A DNA stretch of 64,000 nucleotides. Origin: Prosthecobacter fusiformis (GTDB taxonomy: Bacteria; Verrucomicrobiota; Verrucomicrobiia; Verrucomicrobiales; Verrucomicrobiaceae). The stretch spans positions 62,001 to 126,000 of the forward strand of contig NZ_SOCA01000006.1 of assembly GCF_004364345.1 (NCBI RefSeq). Direction: 5' to 3'. The notes beneath the pieces are model-generated. The model made no database searches. It worked only from the letters and a program-made list of their open reading frames with translations, and had not been told where the DNA came from. Made by a program: the position numbers and the translations under genes. This document shows positions 7,238-56,032 of this stretch, in pieces (position 1 is the stretch's first letter; each line of letters opens with the position of its first letter).

Positions 7238-8074
7238 TTACATGGTGAAGTCTTCGCCCAGGTAAAGGCGGCGGGCTTCGGGGTCATTGACGAGGAAATC
7301 TTTGGTGCCGTGGCGTCTCACCTGACCTTCGTAAATGAGGTAAGCACGGTCCACAATGTTGAGCGTTTCACGTACATTGTGATCGGTGATGAGGATGGCC
7401 AGGCCTGCACGGCGGAGCATGCGGATAATGTCCTGGATTTCGCTGACGGCGATGGGGTCGACTCCGCTAAAGGGCTCATCCAGCATGAGCAGCTTAGGTT
7501 CGGTGACGAGGCTGCGGGCGATGGTGAGGCGGCGCTTCTCACCACCGGAAAGGGTGAGGGCCAGATTGTCCGCCACATGGTCGATGCCGAATTTTTCCAT
7601 GAGCTGCTGGCACTGGTCCTGCCGCTCCTGCTTGGTATAGTTCTGGGTCTCCATCACGGCCAGAATATTCTCCTTCACCGTTAGGCGGCGGAAGATGGAT
7701 TCTTCCTGGGGCAAGTATCCCATTCCCAGTCGGGCGCGTTTGAACATGGGCTGCTCAGTGGCGTCATTGCCATCAAAGATGACCTTTCCGCCATTAGGAC
7801 GCACCAGGCCGACGATCATATAAAAGGTGGTGGTCTTGCCAGCTCCGTTGGGGCCAAGGAGGCCGACGATCTCGCCCGATTTAACCTCGATATCCACGCC
7901 GTTGACGACAGCGCGGCCATCATAAACTTTTTTCAGGCCTTCGGTGTGCAGCAGGATGCTTCTTTCATCCTCTCCCTCTGAATGGGACGGGGATGATTGC
8001 ATGACAGGGGCCGACTCCATGAAGGGAGGTGTGGTTTTGGGGGTGCGTGGACGCTTGGAACGTGCGGCTGACAT
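7238..8074 (-). CDS. lptB: LPS export ABC transporter ATP-binding protein LptB
   Basis: LptB is the cytoplasmic ATPase that, with LptFG, pulls LPS from the inner membrane onto the LptC-LptA bridge. The 278-residue product has Walker A GPNGAGKT (74-81), a Q-loop at Q123, the signature LSGGEKRR (175-182), Walker B LLMLDE (195-200) and the switch histidine H232, as in true LptB proteins. It is about 40 residues longer than usual because of a charged, Pro/Ser-rich N-terminal tail; a downstream Met start at residue 19 or 25 is possible. It lies 44 bases after lptA. No lptF/lptG genes are in the window. Confidence 0.94.
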   Translation of the reverse strand: MSAARSKRPRTPKTTPPFMESAPVMQSSPSHSEGEDERSILLHTEGLKKVYDGRAVVNGVDIEVKSGEIVGLLGPNGAGKTTTFYMIVGLVRPNGGKVIFDGNDATEQPMFKRARLGMGYLPQEESIFRRLTVKENILAVMETQNYTKQERQDQCQQLMEKFGIDHVADNLALTLSGGEKRRLTIARSLVTEPKLLMLDEPFSGVDPIAVSEIQDIIRMLRRAGLAILITDHNVRETLNIVDRAYLIYEGQVRRHGTKDFLVNDPEARRLYLGEDFTM

Positions 8075-11416: not shown

Positions 11417-12109
11417 ATGAGTGAAGACGAACCCAAAAAGGGCTGGGGATGCATGCAGTGGGGGGCTGTGTTGGGAGTCATCATTCTACTTGTTGGCTTT
11501 TTCAGCTCTATCGGCAGCAGTCTCGTTACTAGGAGTCGTCAAATGATAGGTGCCAGCAATGCTGGCCAGATTGTGGGGCTGCTGCTGACTTACGCCAGTG
11601 AGTATAACGGTGTCTTCCCTGACCATGGGAAAGACCTTACCAAGCTGACGTCCAATGACGTCTTTCGGGTATTGTTTAAAGAGGGTCTCATTCAGGATGA
11701 AACGATCTTTGGTTGCCCGCTGTCAGGAGTCTTGCCGGATAAAAATTTCGGCGCGGCACCTGATTACGCGCAGGCTCTGATGCCGGGGGAGAATCATTGG
11801 ATGTTCACGGCAGGTCTCAGCGCGACCGCACCTTCGCATTACCCGCTGGTGATGGAGGATGCCGTCACTTCTACCTGGCCACCCCAGTGGAGCCCCTCTT
11901 CAAAATCGTTCTTTAGTTTCGCGCCACCTAAGAATCGTCCTTCCGGTTCTGCATGGAAGGATGGCAGCATTCTTGCCGCTTTCAATGATGGCTCCGTGCA
12001 GCCGGTGAAGCTAACGCTCAAAAACGGAATTTTGAGCCTTCCCAAAAGTGTCCTGAAACCCGAGGGGAAAACGCCCCTCCCTGAATTGAAGATTTTGGAT
12101 GTTGAGTAA
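11417..12109 (+). CDS. Membrane-anchored pseudopilin-like protein of unknown function
   Basis: From ATG at 11417 the product has 230 residues: a short charged N-terminus, one membrane helix (about residues 15-34), then a globular exported part. The helix is followed by AGQIVGLLLTYASEYNGVFPD and the C-terminus has AAFNDGSVQPV. This resembles the arrangement of DUF1559 and type II pseudopilin-like proteins common in Planctomycetes and Verrucomicrobia (N-terminal helix, then an H/D-G-S-V motif near the end). The canonical prepilin cleavage site is not evident. A frame start at 11387 would add ten residues without a better signal. Function is unknown. Confidence 0.7.
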   Translation: MSEDEPKKGWGCMQWGAVLGVIILLVGFFSSIGSSLVTRSRQMIGASNAGQIVGLLLTYASEYNGVFPDHGKDLTKLTSNDVFRVLFKEGLIQDETIFGCPLSGVLPDKNFGAAPDYAQALMPGENHWMFTAGLSATAPSHYPLVMEDAVTSTWPPQWSPSSKSFFSFAPPKNRPSGSAWKDGSILAAFNDGSVQPVKLTLKNGILSLPKSVLKPEGKTPLPELKILDVE

Positions 12110-12132
12110 TAATCTGTTAGGGGGGCGGGAGA

Positions 12133-12164
12133 TTGATCCCAGTTTTCTGATTTCTAGTTATAAT
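12133..12164 (+). promoter_or_regulatory. Candidate sigma-70 promoter
   Basis: TATAAT at 12159-12164 matches the -10 consensus exactly. The best -35, TTGATC at 12133-12138, is 20 bases away, longer than optimal. It lies about 40 bases before the thioredoxin-like gene. Confidence 0.4.
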
Positions 12165-12202
12165 TTAGGTTAGGCTTGAAACACGGACGAGTTGTTGGCG
12201 TA

Positions 12203-12652
12203 ATGGATTCTCTCATGAAAATCATTGCCAGCGTCTTTCTCTTGGTCCTCAGCGTTGCCGTTCCCCACCTCATCCATGCGGAGGAGTTCGATTCCCGCGA
12301 TGCCATCGGGATCACCTCAGGCCGCAGCGTGGCTGCCGCTTTGAAGCGTGCGGAGAAAGAGAACAAGCAAGTTCTGGTCTTTGCGGTGGACGAGACCAAA
12401 AAGTCTCAGAGTTTCCACATCAAAGGGATGCTGGAGTTCGAGGAGACCAAACAACAGGTGCGCGATCACTTCATCCTCGTGGTCACTGATTTTAAGGACA
12501 AGAACATCAGGGCCATCGTGGCCAACGAGAGCACCGAACGGCCCTTCTACATCCTCTTCAACAAGGATGGCAGCGTCGTCCAAAAAGGCACAACTGCGAT
12601 GGGCGGGACCCTGGGTGCCAAACTGGTGAAGGAATGGACGGAGAAGAAGTGA
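12203..12652 (+). CDS. Exported thioredoxin-fold-like protein lacking CxxC
   Basis: The 149-residue product (145 if the ATG at 12215 is used) has a clear Sec signal peptide ending HLIHAEE. The mature part has the strand-helix pattern of thioredoxin-like proteins: a KQVLVFAVDE strand, a long helix, a HFILVVTDFKD strand and ERPFYILFNKDGSVV, which resembles the cis-Pro region of thioredoxins. No CxxC is present, so a redox role is unlikely. It lies tail-to-tail with the DUF262 gene at 12703. Family membership is tentative and the function unknown. Confidence 0.7.
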   Translation: MDSLMKIIASVFLLVLSVAVPHLIHAEEFDSRDAIGITSGRSVAAALKRAEKENKQVLVFAVDETKKSQSFHIKGMLEFEETKQQVRDHFILVVTDFKDKNIRAIVANESTERPFYILFNKDGSVVQKGTTAMGGTLGAKLVKEWTEKK

Positions 12653-12664
12653 GGCTGGTACCAG

Positions 12665-12693
12665 GCCCCCTCCATACAGGGATGCAAGGGGGC
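12665..12693. terminator. Weak hairpin between convergent genes
   Basis: GCCCCCT (12665-12671) pairs with AGGGGGC (12687-12693) in the 50-base gap between the thioredoxin-like gene and the end of the DUF262 gene. There is no T run, so termination is uncertain. Confidence 0.35.
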
Positions 12694-12702
12694 GGTGTGT
12701 TC

Positions 12703-15078
12703 TCATGAAGGAGAGTGCGTATCGCGGTGGTTGCGCGCGGTCCGCACGATGTCATCAATGGCAGATTCGATTGCTCCGCGCATTACCTGTCTGTGCAGCC
12801 TGTTGTTTTCATCAGGAGCAAAACCGATGGTTTGGAAGGCATCGGATACATCTTTCCGCATCGTTTGGGAGTGACGTTGGAAAAGAGAGAGGCCGAAGGC
12901 GTGATTTTGGAAAGTGATATCAAGGGCGATGATGCACCTATCTGACAGTTTCCAGTTAAGATAAGCGCATGGAGTTTCGCTGCGGGTAGGATGATAACCC
13001 GGGTTGCTAAAAGGAGTCAGTTTACCTTTTTTATGCTTTTCTGAAAGCAGGTCCAGATACAGGACATAACTGTAAAGCTCGAAGTGTTTACTGCGTCCAT
13101 CACGCCCTTCTAGAAGAGAAGCTGTTCCTGGGCCTGGACGAATGATGAAATCCCCGCAGGCAGCTATCGTTTGGGGCCACTTAACGATGAGATATCGCCA
13201 CTCTTGCTTTATTGACTGGGGTGAAGAGACCGCGTCATCAATGATAGCCTGCAAGGATGCGGCGACTGCATTATCCAGATTGATGAATTTAAGGACCGAT
13301 CGCAGGGATTCACGTTGCAGCTCGATTTCCAAGTCTTCATAGCCTCCTTGCAGCAGGCGTTTCCACCTATGGGTATCAGACGCGCGATAGTGAATCAGAT
13401 GGAAGCTGCGATCTGGCATCTCGAAGTCGCCCTTCGCAATGAGCGCACGCTCCAGGCGATATTCCTTGTCGGAGATCTTGTCTTTGGTTGGAAAGACGTG
13501 GCGGGCGCGTTGGAAGTAGAAATGAAAGCTATTTTGGAAGGCCTTATCTTCGGTATGGCTCCATGCGGTTTGCTTGTCTGGAAGGTAGGTATCGAGGATG
13601 CCTGAAAATTTCAGAAGAAACTCGATCTGACCGTCGAAAAAGGGATGCCTTTCAGCTTCATGGAGGACGGGCCACCAGGAGTCGTTGCGTTTAAGAAGCT
13701 GAGCCTTGAGCTGTTCTTCACGGATCTGTTGTGTATCAAATCCTCCAACCTCTAGGGATGACGCAAAATGCTCCACGATGTTGTCTGCCTCTTTGATCAG
13801 ACTGGCGATGGATCTCTGGCTGCGGTTGAAATAGTCCAGGGTGTAGCGGGTGTTTACAGCAAGATTGTGAATGATCCGCATCCACTCTCCAAAGGCTTCT
13901 GGATCTATTTTGTTAGGCAGGGTGTGATTAACATGATAAGCAGCATAAGCGGACAGGCGCACAAGCTCCGCATATTCCAGCGGTTTGGCATTGTTGAGCA
14001 AGGTCTCAAAAAAGGCTTTTTCATCGAAGGGATGTTTCTCAGGGAGCCAGCTTTGGAACTTGGATGACAAGCCGCACCAACGATCTAACAGCACCGTGAG
14101 GGTGATGATGAAAAGTTTATCTGCGGACTCGATGAACAGAGAGCTTGTCAGGCTTGTTTCGTCTTGGTTCAGAGCCTTCACCCGTTCTTCCCATCGGGCG
14201 TCACCGGTCGGTCGGGTAATGATGGCTACGGCTCGGACAAGACGCATGACCTTATCGTCGAAGAGGGTTTCGGGATCCCGGTAGTTCCAAAAAAGGTCGG
14301 TCCATTTCTTGTCGATGCGGTTGCTAAAATGCTGTTTCAAGGAGCCTTGGCTGCCATCGGGCAAAAGAGTGTCGTTCTGAAACAGCTCACCGATCTTTTC
14401 TTCCAGCCGGGCCTTAAAGGTCTCGAAAACGGTCAGGGGCTTTCCCCGTGCGTTCATTTTGATATAAAGGTCATCGGAAAGATTGAAGCGGTCCAGATTC
14501 AGCAGTTGAAAGGTGATGTTGCTGAGGCGGCAGTAAGCATTTTTGCTGTCATGGAAGTGTGCATGGATGGTGTCCAGCATTGTGAGCGCCCCTTTGATCG
14601 TCAGATCATAATGCCAAGCATTGAAAAACCAGGACTGGTCCGTAATGATCTCTGTCAGCTTTTTTGAGCCGGGCATGGGACCGGGGTTGAAGGCGACCAG
14701 GGCATCAAAGAAATCCGTGGAGCTGGGGCGGACTGCATAGGTGAAGCGGGATCTTCCCTCGTGCCGCATTCTGGAGGAAAAATCAGCATACTGGCCTTCA
14801 TGACATGCCAGATACCAATGCAGCAGCAAGAGGGTGGTCAGGCGTTGCTGACCATCCAGGGGACAGAACGCCTTCTCGTTGTCCTGGCTGCCGTAAACGA
14901 AATCCAAATCCAAGGCAGGGGATTCTGTGGTCAGGGCTTGGTGGATGGATTGGAGAAACAAGGTGCGAACTTCAGAGGCGGTTTCCCGCCCTTGGGCGTA
15001 ATCGCGCTGAATGAGGGGGATTTTGACCTTCTCCTGTGTTTGAATGAGGCCGTAAAAACTGGTTCGTTTGCCGTTCAT
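12703..15078 (-). CDS. DUF262 domain protein with long C-terminal region (candidate defence/restriction partner)
   Basis: The 791-residue protein starts with a DUF262 (GmrS-like, ParB-fold) domain: IPLIQRDYAQG at residues 20-30 and LDGQQRLTTL at 74-83 are its two hallmark motifs. DUF262 domains in GmrSD-type enzymes bind nucleotide and are tied to cleavage of modified DNA. The remaining roughly 600 residues are unfamiliar and show no HNH or other nuclease motif that I can see. The ATG overlaps the stop of the upstream DUF262-DUF1524 gene by four bases, so the two are almost surely co-translated. One reading is that this protein regulates or targets its partner nuclease. Confidence 0.85.
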   Translation of the reverse strand: MNGKRTSFYGLIQTQEKVKIPLIQRDYAQGRETASEVRTLFLQSIHQALTTESPALDLDFVYGSQDNEKAFCPLDGQQRLTTLLLLHWYLACHEGQYADFSSRMRHEGRSRFTYAVRPSSTDFFDALVAFNPGPMPGSKKLTEIITDQSWFFNAWHYDLTIKGALTMLDTIHAHFHDSKNAYCRLSNITFQLLNLDRFNLSDDLYIKMNARGKPLTVFETFKARLEEKIGELFQNDTLLPDGSQGSLKQHFSNRIDKKWTDLFWNYRDPETLFDDKVMRLVRAVAIITRPTGDARWEERVKALNQDETSLTSSLFIESADKLFIITLTVLLDRWCGLSSKFQSWLPEKHPFDEKAFFETLLNNAKPLEYAELVRLSAYAAYHVNHTLPNKIDPEAFGEWMRIIHNLAVNTRYTLDYFNRSQRSIASLIKEADNIVEHFASSLEVGGFDTQQIREEQLKAQLLKRNDSWWPVLHEAERHPFFDGQIEFLLKFSGILDTYLPDKQTAWSHTEDKAFQNSFHFYFQRARHVFPTKDKISDKEYRLERALIAKGDFEMPDRSFHLIHYRASDTHRWKRLLQGGYEDLEIELQRESLRSVLKFINLDNAVAASLQAIIDDAVSSPQSIKQEWRYLIVKWPQTIAACGDFIIRPGPGTASLLEGRDGRSKHFELYSYVLYLDLLSEKHKKGKLTPFSNPGYHPTRSETPCAYLNWKLSDRCIIALDITFQNHAFGLSLFQRHSQTMRKDVSDAFQTIGFAPDENNRLHRQVMRGAIESAIDDIVRTARNHRDTHSPS

Positions 15079-16781
15079 GGTTTGTCTCCCGTACTGAAAA
15101 AGGTGGTGAGCGTGTCGATGATCTCCTGCTGATAACTGTCATGGTCGTGTGGCTTCCACCTCATCATGTCATCCACCTCCGAGCTATAAGTCTTGAGAAA
15201 GACATTGCGGGTGCAAAGCGGGACAAACACGCCGTTCTGATCGAGCTCTAAAATGCGTTGCCGCTTGGTTGGAAAAGGTGCGTTTTTGTAACTGCGGTTC
15301 GTTCCTTCATCGAGAAGGGCGAGGTTGCCAATGCTGTTCTCCGTTTCTTTATCGTTATCCCCTTCGTCTATCGTCATCAGCTCTTCGTAAAGGGCGACGA
15401 AGGCGTCAGTGTTCCATGGCTTGGCACTGAGAAGGGTGTCAATGCGTGCTTTGAAAGGGGTGCCTATGGATGGCGAAATCGTGGACAGGTATTTGCGTTG
15501 ATCCGCCTCAGATTGCGGAGGGTCCGATGCTACAGATCGGACATGCTCGATGTCCCAATTGGAGTTCTTGTAATGGTCGAAAGAGAAACGCTGATTGGAA
15601 GCAGCGTGACGCAGCATGGTGGAAAGATTGAAAAGCAGGAGCGTGCTGCGGACTTTGGGATCTCCATACTCCAAGCCAGAGACGAAAGTTTCTATCGATG
15701 CTTTATCCATGTTTTTCGAGTGAGAAATTAGCGAGCCAAAGATCTTGAGGATGAGGTGGCGGCGGAAGGCGCTTTTCGACAGGCCTGCGCCTTCATTGCG
15801 AAGGGTGAGAATGCTGGATCCGTGAATGATGAGGTAACCGATGAGATGGAAGAGCTGGCGGTCATGAAACCACTCTTCCAATGTGTGGAAAAGCTGGCGG
15901 ATCTGTTGCCACATGGCTTCCTGAGTCTTCGGAGTGATGCGGGCGTGGTAAAAATCAAAGAGGCCATGAGGCTGGTCGTGGCTCGGCTTGTCACTGTCTT
16001 CTTTGGCGATGAGCTTAAAAAGCAGCTCGATGCGGGAGGGGGCGGAAGACTCTTTCCCTTGGAGGAAGTACCAGAAGTCATCGTGACGGAGGGCCTTCTC
16101 CATGCGGTCCCATTCCTGGGCGATCTGGAGTTGACGATTGGTGCTGGCTTCAGAGGTCTCTTTGCCGCGGCGCAGGTAAAGAGCGCGGATGAGTTCGGCA
16201 TCAGACAGGGGGATTTTGCCGACGTTGAGTCGCGTGAAGGCATCCACGGCGTTAGCATTGTGTGGAAGCTGGTAACAGATGACGCGGGTGTGGTGCAGCA
16301 GCTTTTGAAGAAAGGCCTCACGAGAGATGGCCAGATCATCCTTGAGCCATTGCGTAATCGAACAATGCATCTGCTGGATGAAGTGATGATCGATCGTCTT
16401 GGCGGGAGCGGCGTCGGGCTTTTCTAGGTAGGCCTGGCTGTCAGGCCGAGTTTCATAGCTGAGTGAGAAGGCAGACTGGTCAAGGGAGGTGAGGATGAGG
16501 TGGATGGTGGTCAGCCTCTGCTGACCATCGATCACCTCCCAAGGGGCATCGGCATGATGTTTCACCACGATGGGCTGCAAAAAATAGAATGTGGGAGTGC
16601 CCTGATTGTCTTGAGGCTCAAAGTTGGCAATGTCATTGAGCAGGGCCAGGACCTGGGTCTTGTCCCAGCGATATCCACGCTGATAGGCGGGAATTTTGAA
16701 ACTATACCCCCGGAGGTCTTCGATGGGTTTCAGACTGATGCTGTCATCGGTCTGGGAGGCGCAAGGGGGTAATGAACTCAT
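15075..16781 (-). CDS. DUF262-DUF1524 fusion, GmrSD-like type IV restriction candidate
   Basis: The 568-residue protein has an N-terminal DUF262 domain (IPAYQRGYRW at 30-39, IDGQQRLTTI at 84-93). The C-terminal part resembles DUF1524, an HNH/His-Me-finger nuclease domain: NWDIEHVRSV near residue 410 holds the expected His, and SIGNLALLDEGTNRSYKN near 484, followed by a PFPTKRQRI stretch, matches the conserved GNL...N...N.PF..KR pattern. In GmrSD these two domains make an NTP-dependent nuclease against glucosylated hydroxymethylcytosine phage DNA. Whether this protein cleaves DNA is inference. It is the first gene of the pair; no promoter is evident in the 120 bases upstream. Confidence 0.88.
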   Translation of the reverse strand: MSSLPPCASQTDDSISLKPIEDLRGYSFKIPAYQRGYRWDKTQVLALLNDIANFEPQDNQGTPTFYFLQPIVVKHHADAPWEVIDGQQRLTTIHLILTSLDQSAFSLSYETRPDSQAYLEKPDAAPAKTIDHHFIQQMHCSITQWLKDDLAISREAFLQKLLHHTRVICYQLPHNANAVDAFTRLNVGKIPLSDAELIRALYLRRGKETSEASTNRQLQIAQEWDRMEKALRHDDFWYFLQGKESSAPSRIELLFKLIAKEDSDKPSHDQPHGLFDFYHARITPKTQEAMWQQIRQLFHTLEEWFHDRQLFHLIGYLIIHGSSILTLRNEGAGLSKSAFRRHLILKIFGSLISHSKNMDKASIETFVSGLEYGDPKVRSTLLLFNLSTMLRHAASNQRFSFDHYKNSNWDIEHVRSVASDPPQSEADQRKYLSTISPSIGTPFKARIDTLLSAKPWNTDAFVALYEELMTIDEGDNDKETENSIGNLALLDEGTNRSYKNAPFPTKRQRILELDQNGVFVPLCTRNVFLKTYSSEVDDMMRWKPHDHDSYQQEIIDTLTTFFSTGDKP

Positions 16782-16901
16782 GGTTGGTGCGACAAAAAGG
16801 TTGAGGAGTGTTCCAACAACCGAAATGACCGGACGTTGGAGTAAGTGGCATAGTGGCTGATCGAATATCCGATGATATCCGCGGCTTTGCGTTGATGCGC
16901 T

Positions 16902-17834
16902 TTATGTAGCTTTTCCAAAAAACACCTTCTCCGCCGTCTTCCCGAGCATGGCGGCTTTATCGCTGGCGGTGAGGAAGGGAAGGTGGTCGCGGATGAGGGC
17001 GAGGGAGGCTTCGTAAGTGTGGCCGGGGGCGACTTGGAAGGGGGAGTCGCTGGCCCACATGAGGCGTTGGGGGCCGAAGTATTGATGGCACTCTTTGATC
17101 ATGGGGCTGAGGTCCAGGTAGGGCGGGGTCCTTTTGCCCAGGGTATAAAAGGCGGAGGTTTTGAGGACGAGCTGTTGATGGACGGAGAGGTGCAGAAGGC
17201 GGTCCAGATGGGCGCGGGTGATGGGGCCGGCCATGCCGACACGGGCGAGGTGGTCCACCACGACGGGGGTCTGGGGATAACGGAGGCACATTTTATCCAC
17301 GGGGCCGAGGGCTTCGGGGCTGATGAGGAGACAGATGCGGAGGCCTTCATCGGCGGCGGTTTTCCACATTTCCTGGATGCCGGGGGTGTCCAGCCAGGCG
17401 GCGACATCCGGGGTGCGGGGGCTGAGACGAAAGCCGCGTACGCCCTGCCGGGCCAGGTCCTGCATGCGACTGCGGATGTGCGGGGCGGAATCATCAATGC
17501 TGGCGACGCCGGAGAAGACGCCTGGGTGGGCGGCGATGCTGTCCAGCATGTAGCTGTTATCAAAGCGATAAAGGCTGGGCTGGACGAGGACGATGCGGCG
17601 CACGCCCACGGGGTGGCAATGGGTGAAGAGCTGCTCCGGTGTGAAGCTGGCGGGGGAGGGGGCTTTTTTCAGAAATCCGGCACGGGGGTAGCGCTTGGTA
17701 TCCGGTGTCCACACATGCACATGGGCATCAATGAGACCGCCGCTGGCGGGCAGGGTGGCGCTGGGGCTCATCTGGGTGCCGACGAGCGCGGTGGCCGTGG
17801 TGGTGAGGAACTGGCGGCGGGAAAGGGTGGTCAT
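16902..17834 (-). CDS. Tat-exported amidohydrolase, Amidohydro_2 family
   Basis: The 310-residue product starts with a Tat signal (SRRQFLTTTATAL at 5-17). It then shows the metal-binding DAHVHVW motif (His38, His40) of amidohydrolase-2/TIM-barrel hydrolases, a VVDHLARVG strand, and the late WASDSPF segment carrying the conserved Asp. Such enzymes include lactonases (for example the L-fucono- or rhamnono-lactonase group) and decarboxylases; export by Tat is common for the verrucomicrobial members. An upstream Met at 17870 would bury the Tat signal behind 12 residues, so 17834 was chosen. It is divergent from the gene at 17990. The substrate cannot be told. Confidence 0.88.
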   Translation of the reverse strand: MTTLSRRQFLTTTATALVGTQMSPSATLPASGGLIDAHVHVWTPDTKRYPRAGFLKKAPSPASFTPEQLFTHCHPVGVRRIVLVQPSLYRFDNSYMLDSIAAHPGVFSGVASIDDSAPHIRSRMQDLARQGVRGFRLSPRTPDVAAWLDTPGIQEMWKTAADEGLRICLLISPEALGPVDKMCLRYPQTPVVVDHLARVGMAGPITRAHLDRLLHLSVHQQLVLKTSAFYTLGKRTPPYLDLSPMIKECHQYFGPQRLMWASDSPFQVAPGHTYEASLALIRDHLPFLTASDKAAMLGKTAEKVFFGKAT

Positions 17835-53267: not shown

Positions 53268-55889
53268 CTATTCTTCTGGGGGTTCCTCGGACGCGGTTTT
53301 TTTTGCAAATCGGCCTTTTTTAGGAGCCGCTGGGGCTTTGGGTTTCGCCTCGCGCGGAGGAAACTCCCAGCCGAGCAGTCGTTTTTCGCCAGCTTTGCAG
53401 AGCAGGAAAGAGCTGAAGGGACGGCCTCTTTTGGAGATCATTCCCTCAATAAGGTCCGTCTTGCCTTCGGTGAAGAATTTGATGGCGTTAGCCACACTGA
53501 TTTCCTTCTTGCACAACACTTTAGGAATGCGCGCGTTACACGCCTTGGCGTCCTTCGCGGCAACGTTGCAAATGTAATGCTCCGTAGTCTCGTAGATCTT
53601 GCCATCACGCTTCTTCAGCTTACACACAGGGCAGGGAGCGATGGGGGCCGCACTGGTGAAATCAAATGGCGGTGGAGCGTCAGGATCGTTCTCACCACCT
53701 GGGAAAACAAAGCTAGTTTTGCCGTCGTCCTTGATCTCGATACCCGCCGTGAAGTCCTTGCCCAGGCGGCTGCGGAAGCCTTCCATCGGGGGCAGGAAAC
53801 GTTTTTCTATCAGCTCACGCAGACGCTCTTCACTCAGTTCATGACCGGCGATGACCTTGTAAACACGGACTTTGCAGTCAGGGTTTTTGCAGGAGAGATA
53901 GTCCTCTTTCTGCTCAAAGCCCCGGTGTCCGCAGACGCCGCATTTGGCATCGAAATCAGGATACACGCGGTCTTTGGCTACCTTGTGATAGGCCTTGGTT
54001 TTCTCCACCACCTCGTTGGTCAGGCGGCGGATGTCCCGCATGAAGCTGCTGCGGTCCAGCTTGTTCTGCTCCATCTGGCGCAGCTTGTATTCCCATTGGC
54101 CGGTCAGTTCCGGGCTGCTGAGCGCCTCAATGCCGATCTGGCTGATCTGGTCGATGAGGGACAAGCCCTTGGTGGTGACGGCGATGTTTCGCTCCACCCG
54201 CTCAATGTATTTGTCAGAAATGAGTCCTTCGATGATGGCGGCGCGGGTGGCTGGGGTGCCCAGGCCACGTTCGCTCATGGCCTCAGCCAGTTCTTCGTCC
54301 TCCACCAGCTTGCCCGCACCTTCCATGGTGGAAAGGAGGGTCGCTTCGTTAAACCGGGCTGGGGGTTTGGTCTGCATTTCAGCGGACTGCAGCTCCAGCG
54401 TTTTGGCGGTGTCGCCATCCTTGGCCAAGACCAGAAGCTTGGCCTTGCTGTCGCCTTCGGCAGCAGCCTCTTCAGCCGCTTTTTTTCCATAGACAGCCAA
54501 CCAGCCGGGAGCCACGAGGACCTTGCCCTCACTTTTGAAGGCATCCTTTTCGATTCGGGTGATTCGGGTGGTCACCTCAAATTCCGCCGGGGGAAAGAAG
54601 ACGGCGACGAAACGGCGTGCGACCATGTCGAACAGTTTCTGCTCCGCCTCTGGCAGTTCCTTGGGCGGGATGAGGCCGGTCGGGATGATGGCAAAGTGGT
54701 CGCTGACCTTAGTCGTATCAAAGACACGCTTGAACGGGCGTACCCAGCCGCTGTCCAGGGCGGTGGCGGCGTGGGTGCCCAGATCCTGCGGCAGGGCACC
54801 AGGCTTGCGGGTATCCTGCCGGGCAAAACCGCCCAGAGTTTCCTTCACCGTGCCGACGTAATCCTCCGGCAGATAGCGGGAATCCGTTCGCGGATAGGTC
54901 AGGACCTTGAACTTTTCATAAAGAGCCTGGGCAATCTGGAGCGTGCGACGGGCTGAGAAACCAAAGCGGTTGCTAGCCTCCCGTTGCAGGCTGGTGAGAT
55001 CATACAGCAGCGGGGCGATCTGTTTGGTCGGACGGGTGATCTGCTCAATTTTGCCCGGTTTACCCAGGCAACGCTGGACGATGGCCTGGGCCTTTTCCAG
55101 ATCCCACAGGCGCTCGGCCTTTTTGTGCTCGTCGGTTTCGTCTTTCTTGAAGGATTCGTCAAACCAGCGGCCTTCATACTGGCCCGCGCTGACCTCAAAG
55201 AGGCCATGCACCTCAAAATAAGTGCGCGGAACGAATGCCTGGATCTCCAGTTCACGCTTGGCCAGGATGGTCAGCGTGGGGGTCTGCACACGGCCCGCCG
55301 GGGTGAGGCGGAAGCCGCCATTGCGGGAATTCAGGGCGGTTAGGGCACGGGTGGAATTGATGCCCACCAGCCAGTCAGACTCGCTGCGGCATTTGGCGGC
55401 ATCCGCGAGCGGGCGCATCTCTTCATCGCTCCGCAGTTTTTGGAAAGCGCCGAGGATGGCCCCTTGCGTCATGGACTGCATCCACAGGCGTTGGACTGGC
55501 TTTTTAATGCCAGCGGCCTCCACGATGTAGCGGAAAATCAGCTCCCCCTCACGCCCGGCATCGCAAGCATTGATGAGCCTATCCACGTCCTTGCGCTTCA
55601 TCAGGCGGCTGAGGAGTTTGAAACGGTCCGCACTGTCCTCAATGGGCTTCAGTTCGAATTCCTGCGGCATGATGGGCAGGTGCGTCCACCCCCAGCCGAT
55701 CTTTTTCCCGTTCACCTCAGGCATGCCAAGTTCGATCAAATGACCGACAGCGCTGGAGATGACATGCGTTTCATTTTCGAAATAGTCCTTCTCCTTGGTG
55801 AAAGCGGTCATGCCCGGCGCTTTGCCGAGGGCACGGGCAAGGTCGGTAGCCACGCTGGGTTTTTCTGCGATGATGAGGGCCTTGGGCAT
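53268..55889 (-). CDS. topB: DNA topoisomerase III (type IA), with extended zinc-finger C-terminus
   Basis: The 873-residue protein begins with the Toprim domain ([11 protein letters not shown] with the catalytic Glu). It has the type IA core with SEWDWLVG-like text (here [15 protein letters not shown]) and the active-site Tyr in [15 protein letters not shown] near residue 333. E. coli TopB is about 650 residues. The excess here is a C-terminal region with CGVCGHRGF...CKNPDC and CPVCKLKK...C zinc-finger-like units, followed by a Lys/Pro/Ala tail. It decatenates single-stranded intermediates during replication and recombination. [12 protein letters not shown] at 55889 is the natural start; an upstream frame adds 20 unrelated residues. 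Confidence 0.92.
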
Positions 55890-56032
55890 GATAAGGAGCA
55901 ATGACTGAAATGGGGGCAACCAAGGGCACGCATTCGGAGCCCCTGTCAAATTTTTCGATGTAGATACGCCCGGCGGACTCTTGTTGGAGGTCCTGACCAG
56001 CGAGGTTAAGAGGTGAAAATGAGCGATTTACC

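What the first reader, a model, noticed from the sequence alone, without database searches (positions are those of the whole stretch)
12703..16781. Coupled pair of DUF262 proteins, one with a DUF1524 nuclease-like domain
The two genes overlap by ATGA and both keep the DUF262 motifs (QR...DGQQRLTT). The first also carries the DUF1524 HNH-like region, so it resembles a fused GmrSD; the second adds a long unfamiliar C-terminal region of about 600 residues. This looks like a two-protein defence or restriction module with one nuclease and one regulator or target-recognition partner.
Basis: partly seen in the sequence, partly recalled or inferred. Interest (0 to 1): 0.55.

Follow-up and report, generated by a model that had tools for sequence, protein, structure and literature searches.

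The report
A GrwAB-type two-protein phage defence pair
Two overlapping bacterial genes encode a nuclease and its constant partner that very probably cut invading virus DNA carrying chemically modified bases; this kind of system (GrwAB) was described in 2025, so the pair is a new member of a known kind, here in a Verrucomicrobiota genome.

Summary
Window 15075-16781 (-) encodes A (568 aa, DUF262 + DUF1524); 12703-15078 (-) encodes B (791 aa, DUF262 plus about 560 residues); they overlap by ATGA. The pair is conserved: of the 80 best loci fetched from GTDB genomes, 77 have A (whole, cut or in pieces) directly upstream of B; two start inside B at a contig edge and one holds an N-terminally truncated B without A. 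Two Verrucomicrobiota genomes of one genus carry A and B fused. Architecture and gene order are those of GrwAB, a two-protein type IV restriction system shown in 2025 to restrict phages with modified DNA, both proteins being needed (PMC12137116). The published catalytic residues fall on invariant columns. Possibly new: a confidently modelled, fast-diverging C-terminal domain of B matching no shared Pfam family, whose fold weakly resembles the DNA-binding domain of T4 MotA, and copies lying between hsdS and hsdR.

The parts
15075..16781 (-). Gene A, GrwA-like nuclease: DUF262 (residues 25-203; DGQQR with R89; FxxxN F182/N186), linker, DUF1524 His-Me nuclease (H413, N486, N495)
   Evidence: Pfam; H413, N486 and N495 are present in 84 of 84 collected A proteins, R89 in 81 with 3 gaps
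12703..15078 (-). Gene B, GrwB-like partner: DUF262 (residues 11-225; DGQQR with R79), mostly helical middle (about 233-640), C-terminal alpha/beta domain (about 641-791); no DUF1524 match
   Evidence: Pfam; AlphaFold2 model, mean pLDDT 89.8
15075..15078 (-). ATGA overlap: stop of A and start of B
   Evidence: ORF coordinates; the same 4-nt overlap in 34 of 83 homologous pairs
12703..13161 (-). C-terminal domain of B (residues 640-791), the fastest diverging part; order beta-beta-beta-alpha-(4 beta)-alpha-beta-alpha
   Evidence: AlphaFold2 of the domain alone, mean pLDDT 94.5; conservation profile; regional identities; among the 25 of 26 Pfam families shown, none is matched by more than one of 68 members

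Best explanation
The pair is a GrwAB-type, two-protein, modification-dependent (type IV) restriction system. A is the effector: its DUF262 domain binds and hydrolyses NTP and gates a C-terminal His-Me finger nuclease. B is a constant partner with a second DUF262 NTPase and a long C-terminal extension, without a recognisable nuclease. A and B probably form a complex that senses base-modified DNA (7-deazaguanine or sugar-hydroxymethylcytosine in the tested relative) and cuts it. Shown here: architecture, conserved pairing, natural fusion, invariant catalytic residues. Shown by others for the V. cholerae system: need for both proteins and for the DGQQR and nuclease residues, and escape by DpdA mutants. 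Inferred: that this Verrucomicrobiota copy is active, its substrate, complex formation, and any role of B's C-terminal domain in recognition.
For: Domains. A directly upstream of B in 77 of 80 loci and on the eight plasmid records I opened, of 16 that match, from five phyla (in L035 the upstream gene is annotated in two overlapping pieces and did not pass my profile threshold). Natural A-B fusion with two DGQQR motifs and the His-Me residues in two genomes of one genus. A and B distance matrices correlate (r = 0.86 over 71 pairs; maximum of 2000 permutations 0.12), as expected of linked co-inheritance. GrwA-first order and GrwB with a long unknown C-terminus are as in the paper; published GrwA R81/H431/N521/N530 fall inside the family's range, and L117 (Mixta theicola) has R81/H431/N520/N529 with B R81 against GrwB R86. 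B's N-terminal half matches SspE (Z 14.4, rmsd 9.5, 378 aligned) and DndI 9jfl (Z 14.2, rmsd 13.4, 279 aligned); A's profile matches DndI, SspE and BrxU chains.
Against: The reference V. cholerae GrwAB sequence did not turn up in any collection I searched, so no direct alignment was made. No phage assay exists for this copy. The window shows no other defence gene (47 of the 49 other ORFs scanned; the DpdF hit and the mad8 hit are an ordinary topoisomerase and an LptB-like ABC protein). The window proteins share only 27-44% (B) and 29-46% (A) identity with the 70 relatives aligned, so substrate range may differ. The fold matches of B have high rmsd.
Confidence: 0.9

Rival explanations
1. The pair belongs to the TgvAB type rather than GrwAB: a DUF262-only protein plus a DUF262+DUF1524 nuclease.
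For: Same domain content; TgvAB is also a two-protein type IV system needing both proteins (PMC11411939).
Against: Gene order is reversed (hsdM VC1769, hsdS VC1768, tgvA VC1767, tgvB VC1766, hsdR VC1765); in TgvB the mutated His and Asn are 31 residues apart (H571, N602) against 64-113 in the 81 A rows listed here and 90 in GrwA (it is not certain that N602 is the homologous Asn); the GrwAB paper states that GrwB and TgvA are distinct beyond DUF262.
Confidence: 0.06
2. A toxin-antitoxin-like or abortive infection module: B restrains a promiscuous nuclease A until infection.
For: Constant linkage and co-inheritance; GrwAB cultures go on to moderate-to-severe lysis with non-dividing filamentous cells.
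Against: [quoted passage not shown] the DGQQR residue of GrwB is itself needed for defence.
Confidence: 0.05
3. A decayed or non-defence copy with a housekeeping role.
For: It stands among LPS, envelope and other housekeeping genes, with no other defence gene recognised in the window.
Against: Catalytic residues are intact and both frames are open. Distribution is patchy: of 24 own or same-genus genomes searched only the own one and G404 carry a strong A match.
Confidence: 0.04

Closest known systems
GrwAB (Vibrio cholerae WASA lineage, VSP-II; PMC12137116)
   Same: Two genes, nuclease first; GrwA = DUF262 + DUF1524; GrwB = DUF262 + long C-terminus of unknown domains; conserved DGQQR and His-Me residues at compatible positions
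TgvAB (V. cholerae VPI-2; PMC11411939)
   Same: Two DUF262 proteins, one with DUF1524; both needed
   Different: Order reversed; shorter His-to-Asn spacing of the mutated residues; partner protein distinct from GrwB according to the GrwAB authors
Single-chain GmrSD / BrxU
   Same: A shares the DUF262 + DUF1524 architecture
   Different: Those act as one protein; here a second DUF262 protein is encoded next door in 77 of 80 loci
SspE / DndI (phosphorothioate sensing)
   Same: Fold matches of B's N-terminal half (Z 14.4 and 14.2) and profile matches of A
   Different: Part of ssp/dnd phosphorothioation systems; no such genes recognised in the 47 window ORFs scanned

Membership tests
GrwAB | First gene DUF262 + DUF1524 His-Me nuclease | tested here: met
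   H413/N486/N495 in 84 of 84 A proteins
GrwAB | Second gene DUF262 followed by a long C-terminus, no DUF1524 | tested here: met
GrwAB | DGQQR in both proteins | tested here: met
   A R89 in 81 of 84 (3 gaps), B R79 in 87 of 89 (2 gaps)
GrwAB | Residue spacing compatible with the published mutants (GrwA R81, H431, N521, N530; GrwB R86) | tested here: met
   Spacings R-H 316-367, H-N 64-113, N-N 9 in the 81 rows listed; the window 324, 73, 9; published 350, 90, 9. Only the N-N spacing is sharp, and it may be general to DUF1524
GrwAB | Sequence homology to V. cholerae GrwA/GrwB over full length | not testable with these tools
GrwAB | Both proteins needed; restricts phages with modified DNA | not testable with these tools
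   needs plaque assays; shown for V. cholerae GrwAB only
TgvAB | DUF262-only gene before the DUF262+DUF1524 gene | tested here: not met
   A precedes B here and in 77 of 80 loci
Single-chain GmrSD/BrxU | One protein suffices, no constant DUF262 partner | tested here: inconclusive
   a partner is adjacent in 77 of 80 loci, but whether A alone suffices was not tested
MotA C-terminal (double wing) domain | Sequence or clear fold relationship to MotA | tested here: inconclusive
   hhalign probability 0.4% against the single T4 sequence; no MotA family among the 25 of 26 Pfam families shown for 68 members; fold match Z 7.5, rmsd 3.0, 102 aligned, not above unrelated rows

The most novel reading that the evidence does not exclude
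[quoted passage not shown] B would then be the specificity subunit and A the cutter, explaining why two proteins are needed.
Probability: 0.15. Interest if true: 0.6.

Novelty: new member of a known kind. Interest (0 to 1): 0.3.

Why it matters
It extends a just-described two-protein restriction type to a Verrucomicrobiota chromosome; the 80 loci fetched span many bacterial groups and one contig binned as an archaeon (L072, a metagenome bin). The GrwAB paper leaves open why two proteins are needed and what GrwB's long C-terminus does. A high-confidence model of that C-terminus, its domain border, the natural fusions, and members that lack the last domain (L112, L114) make that question directly testable.

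Tried and rejected
Defence island around the window copy: not found; of the 49 other ORFs picked, 47 were scanned with PADLOC and only DpdF, mad3 and mad8 models rang at E <= 1e-10. The DpdF hit is the DNA topoisomerase (53268-55949); the mad8 hit and one of two mad3 hits are the LptB-like ABC protein (7238-8074); the second mad3 member was not identified.

Empty-site proof of recent insertion: the amidohydrolase neighbour is present in relatives, but in the 10 relative regions read no other window flank gene was found beside it, apart from one distant lptB-like match, so no empty site could be shown.

MotA-like reader as the main claim: kept only as novel case. In the whole-model look a Mediator tail chain scored above MotA (Z 7.5 against 6.3); with the domain alone 1yb3 (Z 7.8) and the Mediator tail (7.7) tie with MotA (7.5; other MotA entries 6.9 and 6.8), and a type III secretion chaperone scores 6.8. 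Foldseek gives no PDB or viral hit at E <= 0.001 for the domain. Mean net charge of the domain is -3.4 and only 16 of 69 are positive, which does not favour DNA binding, although the window's own is +3. There is no sequence signal. A review (PMC2988021, passages) states that MotA binds and activates with unmodified DNA, so modification is not required for it.

Phage copies: no match in 50,697 phage records at E <= 1e-3. Promoters and terminators: numbers no better than shuffles. A scan of 394 genomes of the order of a Mixta genome gave 19 with a match; besides the centre only two were clear pairs, the rest short DUF262-level matches, and no named reference. Papers: six phrases such as 'two DUF262' gave nothing; GrwAB is in two papers of the library. 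I made no search aimed at type I-embedded GrwAB or A-B fusions beyond, so I do not claim they are unreported. Passages only were also seen of PMC4619093 and PMC10952713.
Full report
What is there. On the minus strand two genes overlap by ATGA: A (15075-16781, 568 aa) followed by B (12703-15078, 791 aa). A matches GmrSD_N/DUF262 (2.3e-31) and GmrSD_C/DUF1524 (3.2e-6); B matches GmrSD_N (2.7e-19, residues 11-225) and otherwise only Urb2 below its cut-off. PADLOC models named Orf5, HEC-06 and SspE match mainly in the DUF262 part. The G+C of the five 1-kb blocks from 12001 to 17000 is 0.50-0.55.

Is it a real pair? Yes. In a sample of 387 Verrucomicrobiota genomes (own included) 27 have a B match; of 29 places, A is found next to B in 28, counting two natural fusions and one weak A hit (43 bits, L026), and not in L027. 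A lies directly upstream of B in 77, counting five where A is cut or in pieces (L042, L070, L093, L097, L102); L089 and L109 begin inside B at the contig edge; L058 holds a B lacking its N-terminal part and no A. On plasmids 16 records match; in the eight I opened, from Bacteroidota, Bacillota, Campylobacterota, Pseudomonadota and Actinomycetota, a DUF262 gene lies directly upstream of B; it passes the A profile in seven and is annotated in two pieces in L035. The distance matrices of A and B correlate at r = 0.86 against at most 0.12 in 2000 permutations over 71 pairs; this is expected from linkage and co-inheritance. In two genomes of one genus A and B are one open frame of about 1250 codons with two DGQQR motifs and one His-Me motif; the frame in L148 ends earlier at its C-terminus than that in L147.

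What it works like. The 2025 paper on V. cholerae GrwAB (PMC12137116; section 11 read in full, passages elsewhere; [quoted passage not shown] 471 hits in about 1% of genomes. The residues mutated there have invariant counterparts here: H413, N486 and N495 in 84 of 84 A proteins, and the DGQQR arginines wherever not gapped. In the 81 A rows listed the arginine-to-histidine spacing is 316-367, histidine-to-asparagine 64-113 and asparagine-to-asparagine always 9; the published values are 350, 90 and 9. TgvAB (PMC11411939; section 9 read in full, passages elsewhere) is the cousin with reversed order. I could not fetch the reference GrwAB sequence, so membership rests on architecture, order and numbering.

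Structure of B. AlphaFold2 on 71 sequences gave mean pLDDT 89.8. The N-terminal half resembles SspE (7drs Z 14.4, rmsd 9.5, 378 aligned) and DndI (9jfl Z 14.2, rmsd 13.4, 279 aligned). A profile comparison of A and B aligns only the DUF262 region and its neighbourhood (probability 97.9%, A residues 11-261). The last 150 residues form a separate alpha/beta domain (mean pLDDT 94.5 alone). Its last 100 residues are the least conserved stretch of B; over the 2346 of 2485 sequence pairs with enough overlap, mean identity is 0.49 in DUF262, 0.31 in the middle and 0.20 in this domain, and it is lowest, or tied lowest, in all 14 closest pairs. This could mean a diversifying recognition part or merely weak constraint. 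Two of 71 proteins lack it (L112, L114) and one carries a much longer tail (L059). Of 26 Pfam families with any match at E <= 10 the 25 shown are each matched by one of 68 members only. Its best fold matches, 1yb3 (Z 7.8), a Mediator tail chain (7.7) and the T4 MotA C-terminal domain (7.5, rmsd 3.0, 102 of 108 residues), are tied and in the range where a common arrangement may be all. MotA is noteworthy because passages of PMC6755090 describe its saddle straddling the major groove with room for glucosylated hydroxymethylcytosine, and the title of a cited paper that I could not open says that its motif specifically recognises modified DNA. Against this, MotA also works on unmodified DNA (PMC2988021, passages), and sequence comparison and net charge do not support the link. 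I keep it as a testable idea only.

Surroundings. This copy has no recognised defence neighbours in the window; nearby genes are LPS, glycosyltransferase and housekeeping types (some of these names are my reading of the sequence). The pair is patchy: of 24 own or same-genus genomes searched only the own one and G404 (41% identity) have a strong A match, which suggests horizontal gain, though no empty site could be shown. The genome holds one further DUF262 gene elsewhere. Among 143 nearest neighbours (120 aa or more, within 1.5 kb) of the 77 named pairs, the PADLOC families matched by most members are type I restriction subunits (at best 5 of 71 and 6 of 72 for HsdR models, 4 of 71 and 5 of 72 for HsdS models; only the 25 leading families are shown and no background control was run). 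I then gave Pfam 19 of the 143, picked by size and strand: six loci (L050, L060, L071, L086, L099, L101) have HsdS directly before A and HsdR directly after B, the same kind of position as tgvAB between hsdS and hsdR in V. cholerae (PMC12409362, passages).

Verdict. The interest lies mainly in what the family data say about B.

Noticed in passing
L050, L060, L071, L086, L099, L101: The A-B pair lies between HsdS and HsdR genes of type I restriction loci, like tgvAB in V. cholerae.
   Followed up: partly
L147 and L148 (unnamed Verrucomicrobiota, one genus): A and B are naturally fused into one open frame of about 1250 codons.
   Followed up: yes
L098/L096 and L116/L064: Near-identical A (0.99) but diverging C-terminus of B (0.69 and 0.85): the 3' end changes fastest within otherwise close loci.
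   Followed up: partly
window 12176-12652: Small thioredoxin-like protein beside the pair; a PADLOC PD-T4-6 match (1.7e-9) covers only the C-terminal end of that profile and probably reflects the thioredoxin-like fold. Found in 2 of 19 genomes searched, own included.
   Followed up: partly
window 53268-55949: A DNA topoisomerase matches PADLOC's DpdF profile (6.6e-115) over positions 28-664 of 1499, a likely false label for defence scans.
   Followed up: yes
   Followed up: no
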